Shown here piece after piece: positions 1 to 8,301 of a stretch of DNA of 21,360 bases. The stretch spans positions 1 through 21,360 of IMG/VR virus record IMGVR_UViG_3300031801_000031; one strand, 5' to 3'. Under the pieces are notes generated by a model. That model did no database searches. It saw only the letters and a list, made by a program, of their open reading frames with translations, and was not told the DNA's origin. The translations under genes and the position numbers were made by a program. Numbering within the stretch: position 1 is the first letter of the stretch; every line of letters begins with the position of its first letter. Source of the stretch: a virus.

Positions 1-147
1 TTACACAACATACAACACTCGCCTTGGCTTACACGCTTCCTACTAACTTGTTAAATATATCTTACGATATATATCTGTGTCGTGTAGTAGTGTAACGACA
101 ACAAATTTCTTTTTGTTACAGCGACCAAGTTTATTTTATTGATATCA
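1..147. other. Left-edge non-coding stretch with two small hairpins
   Basis: No supportable gene was found on either strand. The stretch contains a perfect inverted repeat at 55-72 (7-bp arms ATATATC/GATATAT, loop TTAC). It also has an A/T-rich one at 100-117 (AACAAA/TTTGTT). Both lie downstream of the minus-strand operon that ends at 148. They could form weak transcript-end structures, but neither has a GC-rich stem with a U-tract, so a terminator is not claimed. A minus-strand ATG at 9-11 could start a gene running off the window, but only three codons are visible. Confidence 0.4.
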
Positions 148-255: not shown

Positions 256-383
256 TTAAGTAAACTCCCTAACAAGTTTTCTAAACTTGTTACAACATCC
301 TTAGACATTTGTTCTGTTGTACTTTCATAATGATAAAGCTTTAAGATTTCTCTTAACTCTTTTATTATTTCTGTTTGATTCAT
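252..383 (-). CDS. 43-aa hypothetical protein downstream of ArdC
   Basis: This minus-strand frame begins MNQTEIIKELREILKLYHYE and ends LLGSLLK-stop. A GGAGG-type ribosome binding site lies inside the end of the ardC-like gene, a few bases before the ATG. Start and stop overlap in TAATG, so translation is probably coupled. The sequence is mostly helical-looking, with heptad-like leucines and isoleucines (I6, I7, L10, I13, L14, L16), suggesting a small soluble dimer or a protein that binds a partner. No domain is recognised. Its position directly after an anti-restriction gene suggests it belongs to the same host-defence-countering block, but that is inference only. Confidence 0.6.
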   Translation of the reverse strand: MNQTEIIKELREILKLYHYESTTEQMSKDVVTSLENLLGSLLK

Positions 384-1297
384 TAAGCTACCTCCTGTTC
401 TTGTTCTTTTTGTGGTTGTAATTTCTCACACCACTTAACTGCTTTGTTAGATAATGCAGATGCTTTCCATACTGCGTCTTCATTATCTTCTAAACATTTA
501 ATCCAACTGTTGAGGTACTGTGCGTGGTCCTCTCTTGGATTAGAAGTTATGTTTAGATTGGTAGCCATAAAACAACTTCCTAATTCTGCTACTAACTCTT
601 CGAATGCGTACTCTATCTTAGCAAAACTCGTTGATAGATTTCGTTTGCATCTTGTTTCGTGTCCTGTCCAATGAGTTAGTTCGTGGAATAAGGTACAATA
701 ATAATTTTCAGTTGATGTACTATGTTGGGTATGAATAAATGATTCCTTACTAGGCATCTTAATTGTATCAGTTGTTGGATTATAACAAGCCATACCACCA
801 CCACCTGTAATGATATTCGCTTTAGTATTTGATACAAATGTTTCTGCTCTTGCTATATCATTAACTGTATTGTCAAACTTGTCGAAGTATTTAAACTTCT
901 CAATATCTCCAATGACTTCTTCAATATTCCATACATCAAATGCTCGGTAATGATTAAATCTTCTTAATGCTTTTGATCCATCCCTTTGTTCTACTTCCTT
1001 TTCAAATGGTTGTGGTCTAATCAACTTAATGCTTTTACCTTTCCCCTCTTTAGGTACTTGGCATCCGTGATCTTTCCATTGTTTATATGTACCCCACACC
1101 TTACGAGTATAAGGTTCTTTCTTTGTGAAATATAAACTCAACCATAATGTATTGAGTCCTGTATAGTAGTGTCCGTTACAAGATATGAATCTTCTATTCG
1201 CAAATGGTTTAGTCCAACTTGTACCATTCGCTTTCGCAGTCTTCATAAGCTCAAGCATATGCTTTGTTATGTCTACAAATATATCTTTAACTTTCAT
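383..1297 (-). CDS. ardC: ArdC-type anti-restriction protein with zincin metalloprotease domain
   Basis: The 304-aa protein has the two-part build of the ArdC / TraC N-terminal family known from plasmids and phages. An N-terminal ssDNA-binding ArdC_N-like region (about 5-125) contains W28, the GLNTLWL block near 47-53 and the QWKDHG..VPKEGKGKSI stretch near 73-90. A C-terminal zinc-protease-like region (about 145-290) has HELTH at 205-209, with glutamates at 233-238 (EELVAE) in place for the third zinc ligand. Length is close to the roughly 300 aa of plasmid ArdC. ArdC proteins are known to protect incoming single-stranded DNA from restriction; some are proposed to cleave host proteins. The start at 1297 has a strong AAAGGAGG site. 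It sits in a chain of tiny overlapping genes. In a dsDNA phage the exact target is unknown. Confidence 0.88.
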   Translation of the reverse strand: MKVKDIFVDITKHMLELMKTAKANGTSWTKPFANRRFISCNGHYYTGLNTLWLSLYFTKKEPYTRKVWGTYKQWKDHGCQVPKEGKGKSIKLIRPQPFEKEVEQRDGSKALRRFNHYRAFDVWNIEEVIGDIEKFKYFDKFDNTVNDIARAETFVSNTKANIITGGGGMACYNPTTDTIKMPSKESFIHTQHSTSTENYYCTLFHELTHWTGHETRCKRNLSTSFAKIEYAFEELVAELGSCFMATNLNITSNPREDHAQYLNSWIKCLEDNEDAVWKASALSNKAVKWCEKLQPQKEQEQEVA

Positions 1298-1819: not shown

Positions 1820-2275
1820 CTAAGCGACTTTCTTCTTCGCTTGTATTTGTGAAAGCAATTCTACAGCGTCTTTAACTGCTTGAGTCTGCGACTTCATCGC
1901 TTCAGGATTGAAAACTCTAGGATTCTCAGTATATGTCATACCGAAATGATCCTTATAGAATTTTGAACCTGCTTCGATGAATTCATCGTTTACTGCGATC
2001 TGTTCTTGAAGTTTCTTGATACATCTAGTATCAGACTGGATACTTGTATCTTCCACTTCTTTGCCAGTAAAAGCTCGCATCTTACCAGTTAGTCGGCTTG
2101 CAATTTGAGCAAGTAACGAATTGGCACGTTTGCTAGCTACAGCACAACCTCTAATCATATTCTCAATACTACCTTTTTCAGGTGTATAGGTATCAGATGT
2201 TGGGTTCTCAGACAGTTCTAAACCAGCAAAGTGATTTGCTATTATAGAAAATGCCTTGTGTAGGTCCTTTGTCAT
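1820..2275 (-). CDS. 151-aa hypothetical protein, first leftward gene
   Basis: The start MTKDLHKAFSII is chosen because AAAGGAGGT lies five bases before the ATG; 22 further open codons upstream have no ribosome binding site and lie in the inverted repeat. The protein is mainly helical and charged. A middle section (about 45-80) is rich in A, K, R and S (SKRANSLLAQIASRLTGKMR). The part from about 85 to 105 could form a short coiled coil, and the tail is lysine-rich (IQAKKKVA). No catalytic motif or known domain is visible. It is the first gene leftward from the divergent junction and ends at a strong terminator, so it is probably made early and as its own transcript. A nucleic-acid-binding role is possible but unproven. 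Confidence 0.75.
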   Translation of the reverse strand: MTKDLHKAFSIIANHFAGLELSENPTSDTYTPEKGSIENMIRGCAVASKRANSLLAQIASRLTGKMRAFTGKEVEDTSIQSDTRCIKKLQEQIAVNDEFIEAGSKFYKDHFGMTYTENPRVFNPEAMKSQTQAVKDAVELLSQIQAKKKVA

Positions 2276-2458
2276 AGTATACCTCCTTTCATTTGTTACA
2301 TTTTTACTGAATATCAAACGTGCAAATGTAAAGGAATTCACATCAAGGATGGCTGGTTAGCCACTTGCGTAGCGAAGCGAAGTCCTTGAAGTAGAATTCT
2401 GCATTTGCGATATTCAGGATAAAAATGTTAAATGACAAGGAGGTCCTCATACTATGAC
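2271..2458. repeat. Long imperfect inverted repeat at the divergent junction
   Basis: The left arm is 2271-2348 and the right arm 2384-2458. Aligning the left arm with the reverse complement of the right gives matching blocks in the same order: GTCATAGTAT, ACCTCCTT, TCATTT, ACATTTTTA, CTGAATATC, GCAAATG, GAATTC and TCAAGG, which is 61 matching bases with small gaps. The 35-base centre holds a small hairpin (GGCT GGTT AGCC, 2351-2362). Each arm includes a GGAGG site and an ATG reading outward: the left one starts the 151-aa gene, the right one a 15-codon frame. It may be a bidirectional promoter, a replication origin or the scar of an inverted duplication. Confidence 0.85.
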
Positions 2459-2501
2459 TGGACACTACACGCATTTTCATAATAGTAATTACGCTGGTTG
2501 A
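2454..2501 (+). CDS. 15-aa reading frame starting in the right arm of the inverted repeat
   Basis: An AAGGAGG site at 2438-2444 precedes an ATG that mirrors the start of the leftward 151-aa gene, but the frame (MTGHYTHFHNSNYAG) stops after 15 codons. It is histidine- and aromatic-rich and resembles no known peptide. Either the ribosome binding site and ATG are a passive copy carried in the repeat, or this is a leader peptide at the head of the rightward transcript. The sequence alone cannot tell. Confidence 0.3.
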   Translation: MTGHYTHFHNSNYAG

Positions 2502-2513
2502 AATGTCGGTAGC

Positions 2514-2540
2514 TTGACACAACATCTAGATACCTATAAC
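2514..2540 (+). promoter_or_regulatory. Sigma70-like promoter candidate ahead of the packaging genes
   Basis: A perfect TTGACA (2514-2519) is followed by TATAAC (2535-2540). The 15-base spacer is shorter than the usual 16 to 18, which lowers confidence. Its position between the inverted repeat and the small terminase gene fits the first rightward promoter. An 8-bp palindrome GTAATTAC (2485-2492) lies just upstream and could be an operator. Confidence 0.4.
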
Positions 2541-2570
2541 ACTCTTACCTGAAAGGGAGATTGCTAGAAT

Positions 2571-2618
2571 ATGTCTAATAGAGTGATGCTGTACCAGCTA
2601 GGAAACTACCTCAAATGA
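2571..2618 (+). CDS. 15-aa leader peptide overlapping the small terminase start
   Basis: The frame ATG at 2571 encodes MSNRVMLYQLGNYLK and stops at TGA 2616-2618, overlapping the ATG of the small terminase gene in ATGA. A GAAAGGGAGA ribosome-binding stretch lies 2551-2560. The small terminase gene lacks an obvious ribosome binding site of its own, so coupling from this leader would explain how it is translated. Function beyond coupling is unknown, and chance cannot be excluded for a frame this short. Confidence 0.4.
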   Translation: MSNRVMLYQLGNYLK

Positions 2619-3007
2619 AGTTACCTCAAATTACAAAGCCGACTGGGAAGATGCGAATTTCCTCGAAAGCAAAGAAGTTAGTAGATACATTAGTATCCAG
2701 CGGATGTACTATCACAGAAGCTTCAAAAGTCGCAGGATACCGAGGCAATTCGTCAAGAGTAAGTGCGAGCAAGATGCTACGAAAACCCGAAGTACAAGAG
2801 TATATGGCACGTGAGGTTCAACGGGCATTCGGGCTTTCTTCGGCTCGTGCTGGTGTAAAGCTCCTAGCCCTTTCTCAGGGTGCTAAGAGTGAATACGTAC
2901 AGCTCGAAGCTTCCAACTCCATACTAGATCGAGCAGGATTCAAAGCACCTGAGAAACACCAACACCTTGTCGGTGGCGATTTCCACATCAACATCGACCT
3001 AACGTAG
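2615..3007 (+). CDS. terS: Small terminase subunit (DNA recognition for packaging)
   Basis: The 130-aa protein has a helix-turn-helix-like N-terminal part (about 22-66): KLVDTLVSSGCTITEASKVA, then GY..NSSRVSASKMLRKPEVQEYM. This is the pattern of small terminase subunits that bind phage DNA and hand it to the large subunit. A helical stretch (about 68-105) that would make the oligomer follows, then a C-terminal tail with GGDFHINIDL. Length is typical of the family. The start at 2615 overlaps a 15-codon leader. The gene's G+C looks higher than in the genes to the right, and it is separated from the large terminase by about 1.2 kb of small genes and a structured gap. Assignment rests on motif and context. 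Confidence 0.75.
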   Translation: MKLPQITKPTGKMRISSKAKKLVDTLVSSGCTITEASKVAGYRGNSSRVSASKMLRKPEVQEYMAREVQRAFGLSSARAGVKLLALSQGAKSEYVQLEASNSILDRAGFKAPEKHQHLVGGDFHINIDLT

Positions 3008-7602: not shown

Positions 7603-8301
7603 ATGCACAAATCTATTCTAGTTATTTCCGATCTTCATATTCCGTATCATCATAAAGATACTTTCGCTTTTCTAAAAGAAATCAAAAAAGAATTTAAACC
7701 TGACTTCATCGTTAATATTGGCGATTCGTTAGACTTTCACGCAATCAATATGCACACACACGATCCTGATTTAATGTCAGCAGGATATGAATTACAAGCA
7801 TCTAAAAAATATATTAAAGAATTAGAATCTATTTTTCCTCAAGTCGTAGAAGTAGATTCAAATCATTCAAGTTTAGTTTATAGAAGAGCATTAAAATTTG
7901 GAATGAGTAGATCATTCTTAAAAGATTATGGAGAATTTCTTGGAACAAAGAAATGGAAATGGGTAGATGATCTTACTTTAGATTTACCCAATAAACAAAG
8001 ATGTTTCTTTACTCACGGAAGATCAGCAGATATTTTAAAAGTATCTCAGACAATGGGTATGTCCGCAGTTCAAGGACATTATCATACACAGTTCTGTATT
8101 AAATACTGGGCGAATCCTGATAATCTTTTCTTTGCTATGAATGTTGGATGTTTAATAAATCAAAAATCATTAGCGTTTCATTATGCTAAAAATTTTCGTA
8201 CACGCTTTGTCATTGGATGTGGAATTATTTTAGATGGATTTCCTAAATTATTACCAATGGTTTTAAATAAAACAGGTAATTGGATAGGTACACTTAAATG
8301 A
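7603..8301 (+). CDS. Calcineurin-like metallophosphoesterase
   Basis: The 232-aa protein shows the full metal-binding set of the family: ISDLH (D10, H12), NIGDSLDF (D41), a GNHE-like SNH (N87, H88), THGRS (H138) and GHYH (H159, H161). Such enzymes hydrolyse phosphomono- or diesters of nucleotides or nucleic acids with two metal ions. The substrate here is unknown. Compared with the classic GNHE motif, glycine and the final acidic residue are replaced (DSNHSS), as is seen in some phage members. It stands between the portal and scaffold-like genes, an unusual place for an enzyme. The ATG at 7603 lacks a clear ribosome binding site. Its stop overlaps the start of a hidden 39-aa gene. Confidence 0.88.
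   Translation: MHKSILVISDLHIPYHHKDTFAFLKEIKKEFKPDFIVNIGDSLDFHAINMHTHDPDLMSAGYELQASKKYIKELESIFPQVVEVDSNHSSLVYRRALKFGMSRSFLKDYGEFLGTKKWKWVDDLTLDLPNKQRCFFTHGRSADILKVSQTMGMSAVQGHYHTQFCIKYWANPDNLFFAMNVGCLINQKSLAFHYAKNFRTRFVIGCGIILDGFPKLLPMVLNKTGNWIGTLK

What the first reader, a model, noticed from the sequence alone, without database searches (positions are those of the whole stretch)
2271..2458. Mirror-image start region: a 188-bp imperfect inverted repeat at the divergent junction
The two arms (2271-2348 and 2384-2458) share eight ordered blocks, including ribosome binding site and ATG, so the same leader points outward on both strands. Only the left one opens a long gene. This could be an inverted duplication of a promoter-leader, a bidirectional early promoter with overlapping control, or a replication origin able to extrude a cruciform. 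The small central hairpin GGCT-GGTT-AGCC supports a cruciform. The arrangement is not explained by the gene content.
Basis: seen in the sequence. Interest (0 to 1): 0.72.

Follow-up and report, generated by a model that had tools for sequence, protein, structure and literature searches.

The report
Kilobase bulged hairpin in marine phages
Where the genes of this SAR11-type ocean phage point away from each other, about 790 bases fold back on themselves into one long, regularly bulged hairpin that runs through two protein genes; relatives with different sequences keep the pairing by matching changes on both sides, so it is a real and apparently undescribed structural element whose job is still unknown.

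Summary
The inverted repeat is real, and about four times longer than reported. One arm lies mostly inside the leftward gene (1820-2275), the other covers the late promoter, leader and first ~35 codons of the small-terminase gene. Significant hairpins sit upstream of TerS in pelagiphage Hodr and in 47 of 59 IMG/VR relatives, with different sequences but preserved complementarity. Compensatory changes exceed a matched null about two- to four-fold, and bulge positions are partly conserved. This is neither chance, nor a one-off inverted duplication, nor tract gene conversion. Wobble pairs and the apical three-way junction favour the rightward (TerS-sense) strand: a strand-specific RNA or single-stranded-DNA fold, not a symmetric cruciform. 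I think a structured RNA from the rightward strand is most likely, with breaks keeping helices near one turn, possibly against RNase III. Transcription is not shown; function is inferred. The leftward gene is a genuine protein gene of unknown function. No Rfam family reaches threshold, and I found no description in the literature library.

The parts
1972..2349 (.). left arm of the hairpin; 1972-2275 lies inside the leftward gene, 2276-2349 is its leader
   Evidence: strict local alignment of arms
2383..2757 (.). right arm; contains the mirrored RBS/ATG, the rightward late promoter, the TerS leader and about 35 codons of TerS (counted from ATG 2651)
2350..2382 (+). apical region of the hairpin; in Hodr-like relatives a three-way junction (SL1+SL2) with covarying stems
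1820..2275 (-). leftward gene, 151 aa, family of unknown function, all-helical model; coding sequence doubles as most of the left arm
   Evidence: ORF; dN/dS 0.09-0.44 for 15 of 16 pairs; AlphaFold pLDDT 85; no Pfam/PHROGs hit for the window protein
2615..3007 (+). small terminase subunit (TerS); many relatives align only from residue 13-15, so the start is probably ATG 2651
   Evidence: Pfam PF03592 and PHROGs terminase small subunit
2514..2540 (+). sigma70-like promoter TTGACA-15-TATAAC in the right arm pointing to TerS; relatives have TTGACA-16..18-TATACT at the same place
2439..2456 (+). mirror image of the leftward gene's RBS and start (AAGGAGGTCCTCATACTATG); its frame stops after 15 codons
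1785..1812 (-). terminator-like hairpin just downstream of the leftward gene

Best explanation
A conserved, strand-specific giant hairpin, most likely an RNA read in the TerS (+) direction across both arms (from about 1970 to about 2760). Shown by computation: the arms are complementary, co-evolve by compensatory changes, and keep uninterrupted helices to 10-13 bp. Supported across the wider group: the + strand folds better than the - strand, and the top is a three-way junction. Inferred: it is transcribed as one RNA; interruptions about once per helical turn make it a poor RNase III substrate; it acts at the early/late junction, where the full-length RNA would be antisense to the leftward gene and would lock the TerS start in the stem, while the short transcript from the right-arm promoter would leave TerS free. 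The regulatory step is the weakest part (about 0.25 on its own).
For: Own-arm scores (88-150) exceed every cross-phage arm comparison for 12 of 13 members; in the remaining row (L008) one comparison is about level. Compensatory changes above null for all references, e.g. 136 vs 33+-9. Conserved bulges 21 of 47 vs 6 expected; 12 of 16 compensated pairs flanked by conserved bulges. Mismatch-shuffled null: + strand folds better than null (p=0.0004), - strand not (p=0.79), difference p=2.6e-5, 35 loci. Apical consensus -40.3 (+) vs -30.1 (-) kcal/mol; an invariant G.U and a U.G/U-A pair form only on +; 97.3% of cells paired, covariation 0.281 vs 0.096 shuffled. Longest run 10-13 bp vs 15-20 expected; P<0.05 in 15 of 17. 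One helical turn is described as the minimal E. coli RNase III substrate (PMC3386247). Own versus cross-arm scores.
Against: No transcript data. No convincing + strand promoter at the left outer end; the only conserved + strand promoter lies inside the right arm and would give a transcript without the hairpin. In the window's own clade the mismatch-based strand test is neutral (about 0), so the strand call there rests on the apical folds (window -52.5 vs -46.1) and on relatives. G.T wobble would support a + strand ssDNA hairpin equally well. Some relatives (L022, L055) have uninterrupted runs of 28-32 bp, so the cap is not universal. Pair turnover is fast: most single-arm changes are not compensated at the same pair.
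Confidence: 0.5

Rival explanations
1. A + strand single-stranded-DNA hairpin used when the phage DNA is unwound or single-stranded (priming site, ssDNA promoter of the Frpo/sso type, or packaging/replication signal). The consensus -35/-10 in the stem would be double-stranded when the + strand folds.
For: Strand preference and G.T-compatible pairs; a consensus promoter sits inside the stem; Hodr encodes SSB, a YqaJ/RecE-like exonuclease, a RusA-like protein and a DnaT-like protein; the element adjoins TerS, a usual place for cos/pac sites (general knowledge).
Against: No ssDNA stage is known for these dsDNA phages; relatives with the strongest strand bias (L070, L077) lack a conserved promoter there; known ssDNA promoters are much shorter (general knowledge).
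Confidence: 0.2
2. A double-stranded DNA cruciform or inverted repeat (origin, packaging or recombination site) in which both strands matter equally.
For: Strand-neutral mismatch test in the window's own clade; position at the only divergent junction in Hodr; window GC-skew minimum nearby at 2178.
Against: + strand bias in the wider group and in the apical domain; Hodr's skew minimum is not at the element; frequent bulges make extrusion of long arms unlikely.
Confidence: 0.12
3. Concerted evolution without function: the right arm is a decayed inverted copy of the leftward gene, repeatedly homogenised by fold-back synthesis or gene conversion, with indels escaping correction.
For: Own arms are more alike than orthologous arms of distant phages; mismatches rise with distance from the centre (3 to 15%); indels are more frequent than ordinary divergence would suggest.
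Against: Right arms carry right-specific conserved features and L/R differences that persist across species; compensated pairs lie between conserved bulges, so tracts would have to be shorter than a bulge interval; strand bias and limited run length are not predicted.
Confidence: 0.12
4. Assembly or amplification artefact (chimeric inverted fold-back).
For: Fold-back chimeras are a known artefact of whole-genome amplification (general knowledge).
Against: Present in the isolate genome Hodr and in dozens of independent contigs with different sequences; artefacts give near-perfect repeats, not bulged, covarying ones.
Confidence: 0.01

Closest known systems
Large structured non-coding RNAs of phages and bacteria (e.g. 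GOLLD, ROOL, OLE; from memory)
   Same: Long, covarying structured RNA in a phage genome; variable stems with conserved apical loops
   Different: This is essentially one unbranched bulged rod overlapping two divergent protein genes; no Rfam family reaches its gathering score
Single-stranded promoters/origins (Frpo/ssiD of F plasmid, plasmid sso)
   Same: Strand-specific imperfect hairpin with promoter elements in the stem; active only when single-stranded (PMC7736820)
   Different: Several times longer, overlaps coding sequence, in a dsDNA phage without a known ssDNA stage
Rod-shaped RNAs (viroids, HDV, Obelisks; from memory)
   Same: Kilobase-scale bulged rod with an ORF occupying one side, no long perfect helix
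   Different: Encoded in a dsDNA phage; no evidence of circular RNA or RNA replication; the ORF was not compared directly with Oblin-1 or delta antigen
T7 concatemer-processing hairpin (from memory)
   Same: Fold-back near packaging functions
   Different: Not tested here; complementarity here covers two genes and covaries

Membership tests
Any Rfam RNA family | covariance-model score at or above gathering | tested here: not met
   0 gathering hits in the window; best weak hit MIR4208, 29.9 bits vs gathering 140, a generic hairpin
Conserved structured RNA/ssDNA (generic) | compensatory changes above matched null | tested here: met
Conserved structured RNA/ssDNA (generic) | strand preference (wobble pairs on one strand) | tested here: met
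   met in the wider group and apical domain; neutral for the long stem in the window's own clade
Transcribed ncRNA | detected transcript with defined ends | not testable with these tools
   no expression data at hand
Frpo/sso-type ssDNA promoter | promoter elements in the folded stem | tested here: inconclusive
   TTGACA-N15..18-TATACT/TATAAC in the right arm of the main clade only
Frpo/sso-type ssDNA promoter | ssDNA stage of the element | not testable with these tools
   not known for these phages
Replication origin / cruciform | strand-symmetric pairing, initiator sites, skew switch | tested here: inconclusive
   pairing not symmetric overall; window skew minimum at 2178 but Hodr minimum elsewhere; initiator sites not tested
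Bidirectional promoter with duplicated leader | conserved promoters on both strands at the junction | tested here: not met
   only the rightward promoter is conserved; no consistent leftward promoter upstream of the leftward gene

The most novel reading that the evidence does not exclude
A new class of phage RNA: a 0.8-1.1 kb rod encoded across two divergent protein genes, whose pairing is selected strongly enough to influence codons of one gene against another, with breaks about once per helical turn to evade RNase III, acting at the early/late switch or as a decoy for a host RNA-binding system.
Probability: 0.4. Interest if true: 0.9.

Novelty: categorically new. Interest (0 to 1): 0.8.

Why it matters
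Phages of SAR11, among the most abundant bacteria in the ocean, carry a large, fast-evolving but strictly maintained secondary structure that sequence searches miss because only the pairing is conserved. It couples two unrelated protein-coding sequences by base pairing, limits helix length, and is testable in an existing phage-host pair (Hodr on HTCC1062). Whether it is RNA or ssDNA, it would be a new kind of element, and it gives a method (own-arm versus cross-arm complementarity) for finding others.

Tried and rejected
Rfam: nothing at gathering, only a generic hairpin at E 0.03. Inverted paralogous genes: rejected, because bulges break the frame and the mirrored ORF stops after 15 codons. 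Leftward ORF as a by-product of the RNA: rejected, dN/dS 0.09-0.44 in 15 of 16 pairs (L013/L016 0.80). Artefact: rejected. Early + strand promoter at the left boundary (TTGTAT-16-TATAAT in Hodr and near relatives): judged a probable by-product of the overlapping leftward early promoter. Presence in other isolates: MEP301, HTVC024P, Lederberg, Greip and Skadi-5 lack it; HTVC010P has a weak mirror at its divergent junction (25.5 vs shuffled maximum 20.5), left as suggestive. Four-way MAFFT of distant arms misaligned and was not used for counts. Fold searches of the leftward protein: viral homologues of unknown function and generic helical hairpins. The genome-contig scan with the protein alignment could not run. 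Literature library: one pelagiphage/hairpin search returned two papers whose titles and abstracts are unrelated; no paper with pelagiphage and inverted repeat.

Full report
What is there. The window is a 21,360-base virus record from a podovirus-like phage related to Pelagibacter phage EXVC031P Hodr: its portal is 86% and its TerS 77% identical to Hodr's. At the divergent junction a leftward 151-aa gene (1820-2275) faces away from TerS (ORF 2615-3007, probable start 2651). These are real, but pairing continues outward to 1972 and 2757: 300 identical outward letters, 28 mismatches and 97 gap letters. The gaps are mostly 1-4 nt on either side, about one per 7-8 pairs. The 786 nt fold into a single rod at -321.8 kcal/mol (+ strand; z -16.6) or -309.8 (- strand; z -17.4). 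It is the only such structure in the window and in Hodr.

It is conserved as complementarity, not as sequence. Of 59 IMG/VR regions upstream of TerS homologues, 47 exceed the maximum of 25 dinucleotide shuffles by more than 3, as do the window and Hodr (some loci are near-duplicates). In 13 members of the window/Hodr clade, the score of a phage's left arm against its own right arm (88-150) beats all comparisons with other phages' arms in nearly every row; among very close relatives one or two cross-comparisons are about level (for example L012 left arm against L008 right arm, 116, versus L008's own 114). For distant pairs the cross-phage scores are mostly 20-55. For distant phages own-arm similarity even exceeds left-left similarity (window vs Hodr left arms 85, window own arms 140). 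For each reference, pair columns in which both arms changed to a new matching letter are about two to four times more frequent than in a null that re-pairs columns of the same reference letter, above every one of 300 shuffles for most references (L002 is the exception: 75 vs maximum 82).

Selection rather than copying. Between phages with 80% identical left arms (L083/L003), 21 of 47 bulges keep position, side and size, against 6 expected by shifting, and 12 of 16 compensated pairs lie between conserved bulges. In the close Hodr group, L/R differences are fixed across species. Gene-conversion tracts would erase them. Pair turnover is nevertheless fast: many single-arm changes are not compensated at the same position, so overall duplex content, rather than each pair, seems to be what is kept.

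Helix length is limited. Over the inner 200 pairs the longest uninterrupted run is 10-13 bp, where random placement of the same number of breaks gives 15-20; P is below 0.05 in 15 of 17 sequences (the sequences are related, so these are not independent tests). One helical turn is described as the minimal substrate of E. coli RNase III (PMC3386247), which suggests, but does not show, avoidance of that enzyme. The limit does not hold in L022 and L055 (runs of 28-32).

Strand. RNA folds of the + strand (TerS direction) are more stable than the - strand in most loci. Against a null that shuffles mismatch letters, the + strand gains 4.4 kcal/mol on average (p=0.0004), the - strand none (p=0.79), difference p=2.6e-5 over 35 loci. 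The effect comes from outer relatives; in the window's own clade it is about zero. The apical 150 nt, however, favour + by several to ~15 kcal/mol in most members, including the window (-52.5 vs -46.1). RNAalifold on 11 Hodr-like sequences gives -40.3 (+) vs -30.1 (-); an invariant G.U and a U.G/U-A pair exist only on +. A fixed-structure count gives 97.3% cells paired and covariation 0.281 (shuffled 0.096; slid versions at most 0.094). The structure was taken from the same alignment, so the comparison with slid versions is partly favoured by construction; the shuffle control is the fairer one. The apex is a three-way junction whose SL2 loop (UCCUUGCCU) is largely conserved while its stem covaries. 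G.T wobble in DNA would give the same signal, so RNA and ssDNA are not separated.

Genes overlapped. The leftward gene is a true protein gene: dN/dS 0.09-0.44 in 15 of 16 pairs. It gives an all-helical model with pLDDT 85, no family match, and viral homologues of unknown function. The right arm carries a sigma70-like promoter pointing to TerS (TTGACA 2514 -15- TATAAC; TATACT with 16-18 nt spacing in relatives) and reaches about 35 codons into TerS. No consistent promoter for the leftward gene was found.

Interpretation. I conclude that this is a conserved, strand-specific giant hairpin, most likely a structured RNA of the rightward strand (0.5), with a + strand ssDNA element as main rival (0.2). 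What it does is inferred: a full-length rightward RNA would be antisense to the leftward gene and would hide the TerS start, while the right-arm promoter makes a free TerS mRNA. That would suit early/late control, but no expression data exist here. A dsDNA cruciform or origin, and neutral concerted evolution, are less consistent with the strand and bulge evidence.

Novelty. No Rfam family reaches its gathering score; the library searched holds no paper with 'pelagiphage' and 'inverted repeat', and the two papers found for pelagiphage and hairpin have unrelated titles and abstracts and were not read. It resembles rod RNAs and ssDNA promoters in different respects but is not shown to belong to either.

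Noticed in passing
L104 (HTVC010P) record ends, centre about 34747: HTVC010P shows a weak mirrored RBS/start at its divergent junction (25.5 vs shuffled maximum 20.5); the public record is cut within it.
   Followed up: partly
L022, L055 upstream of TerS: Relatives whose hairpins contain perfect runs of 28-32 bp, unlike the window's clade.
   Followed up: no
L027/L030, -1442 to -111 of TerS: Very strong 1.3-kb hairpin (score 538 under stricter scoring) placed further upstream, over a 164-aa leftward ORF.
   Followed up: partly
IMG/VR loci L011, L014, L018, L024, L041, L043, L054, L064, L082: Nine of 80 contigs begin within 140 bp upstream of the TerS match; could be assembly breaks at the hairpin or physical genome ends.
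   Followed up: no
L067, L071, L074 apex: Conserved apical motif GGGCGTTCGGCTTG(C/T)CCGAATCCCCCGAAG beside a covarying stem-loop.
   Followed up: no
window 383-1297 (-): ArdC-like anti-restriction protein (ArdcN + MPTase-PolyVal) in the early region.
   Followed up: no
window 7603-8301 (+): Calcineurin-like metallophosphoesterase gene between portal and capsid genes.
   Followed up: no
OQ414635 (Hodr) annotation: Locus tags of the Hodr record read EXVC032PBaldr, a probable labelling slip in the public record.
   Followed up: no
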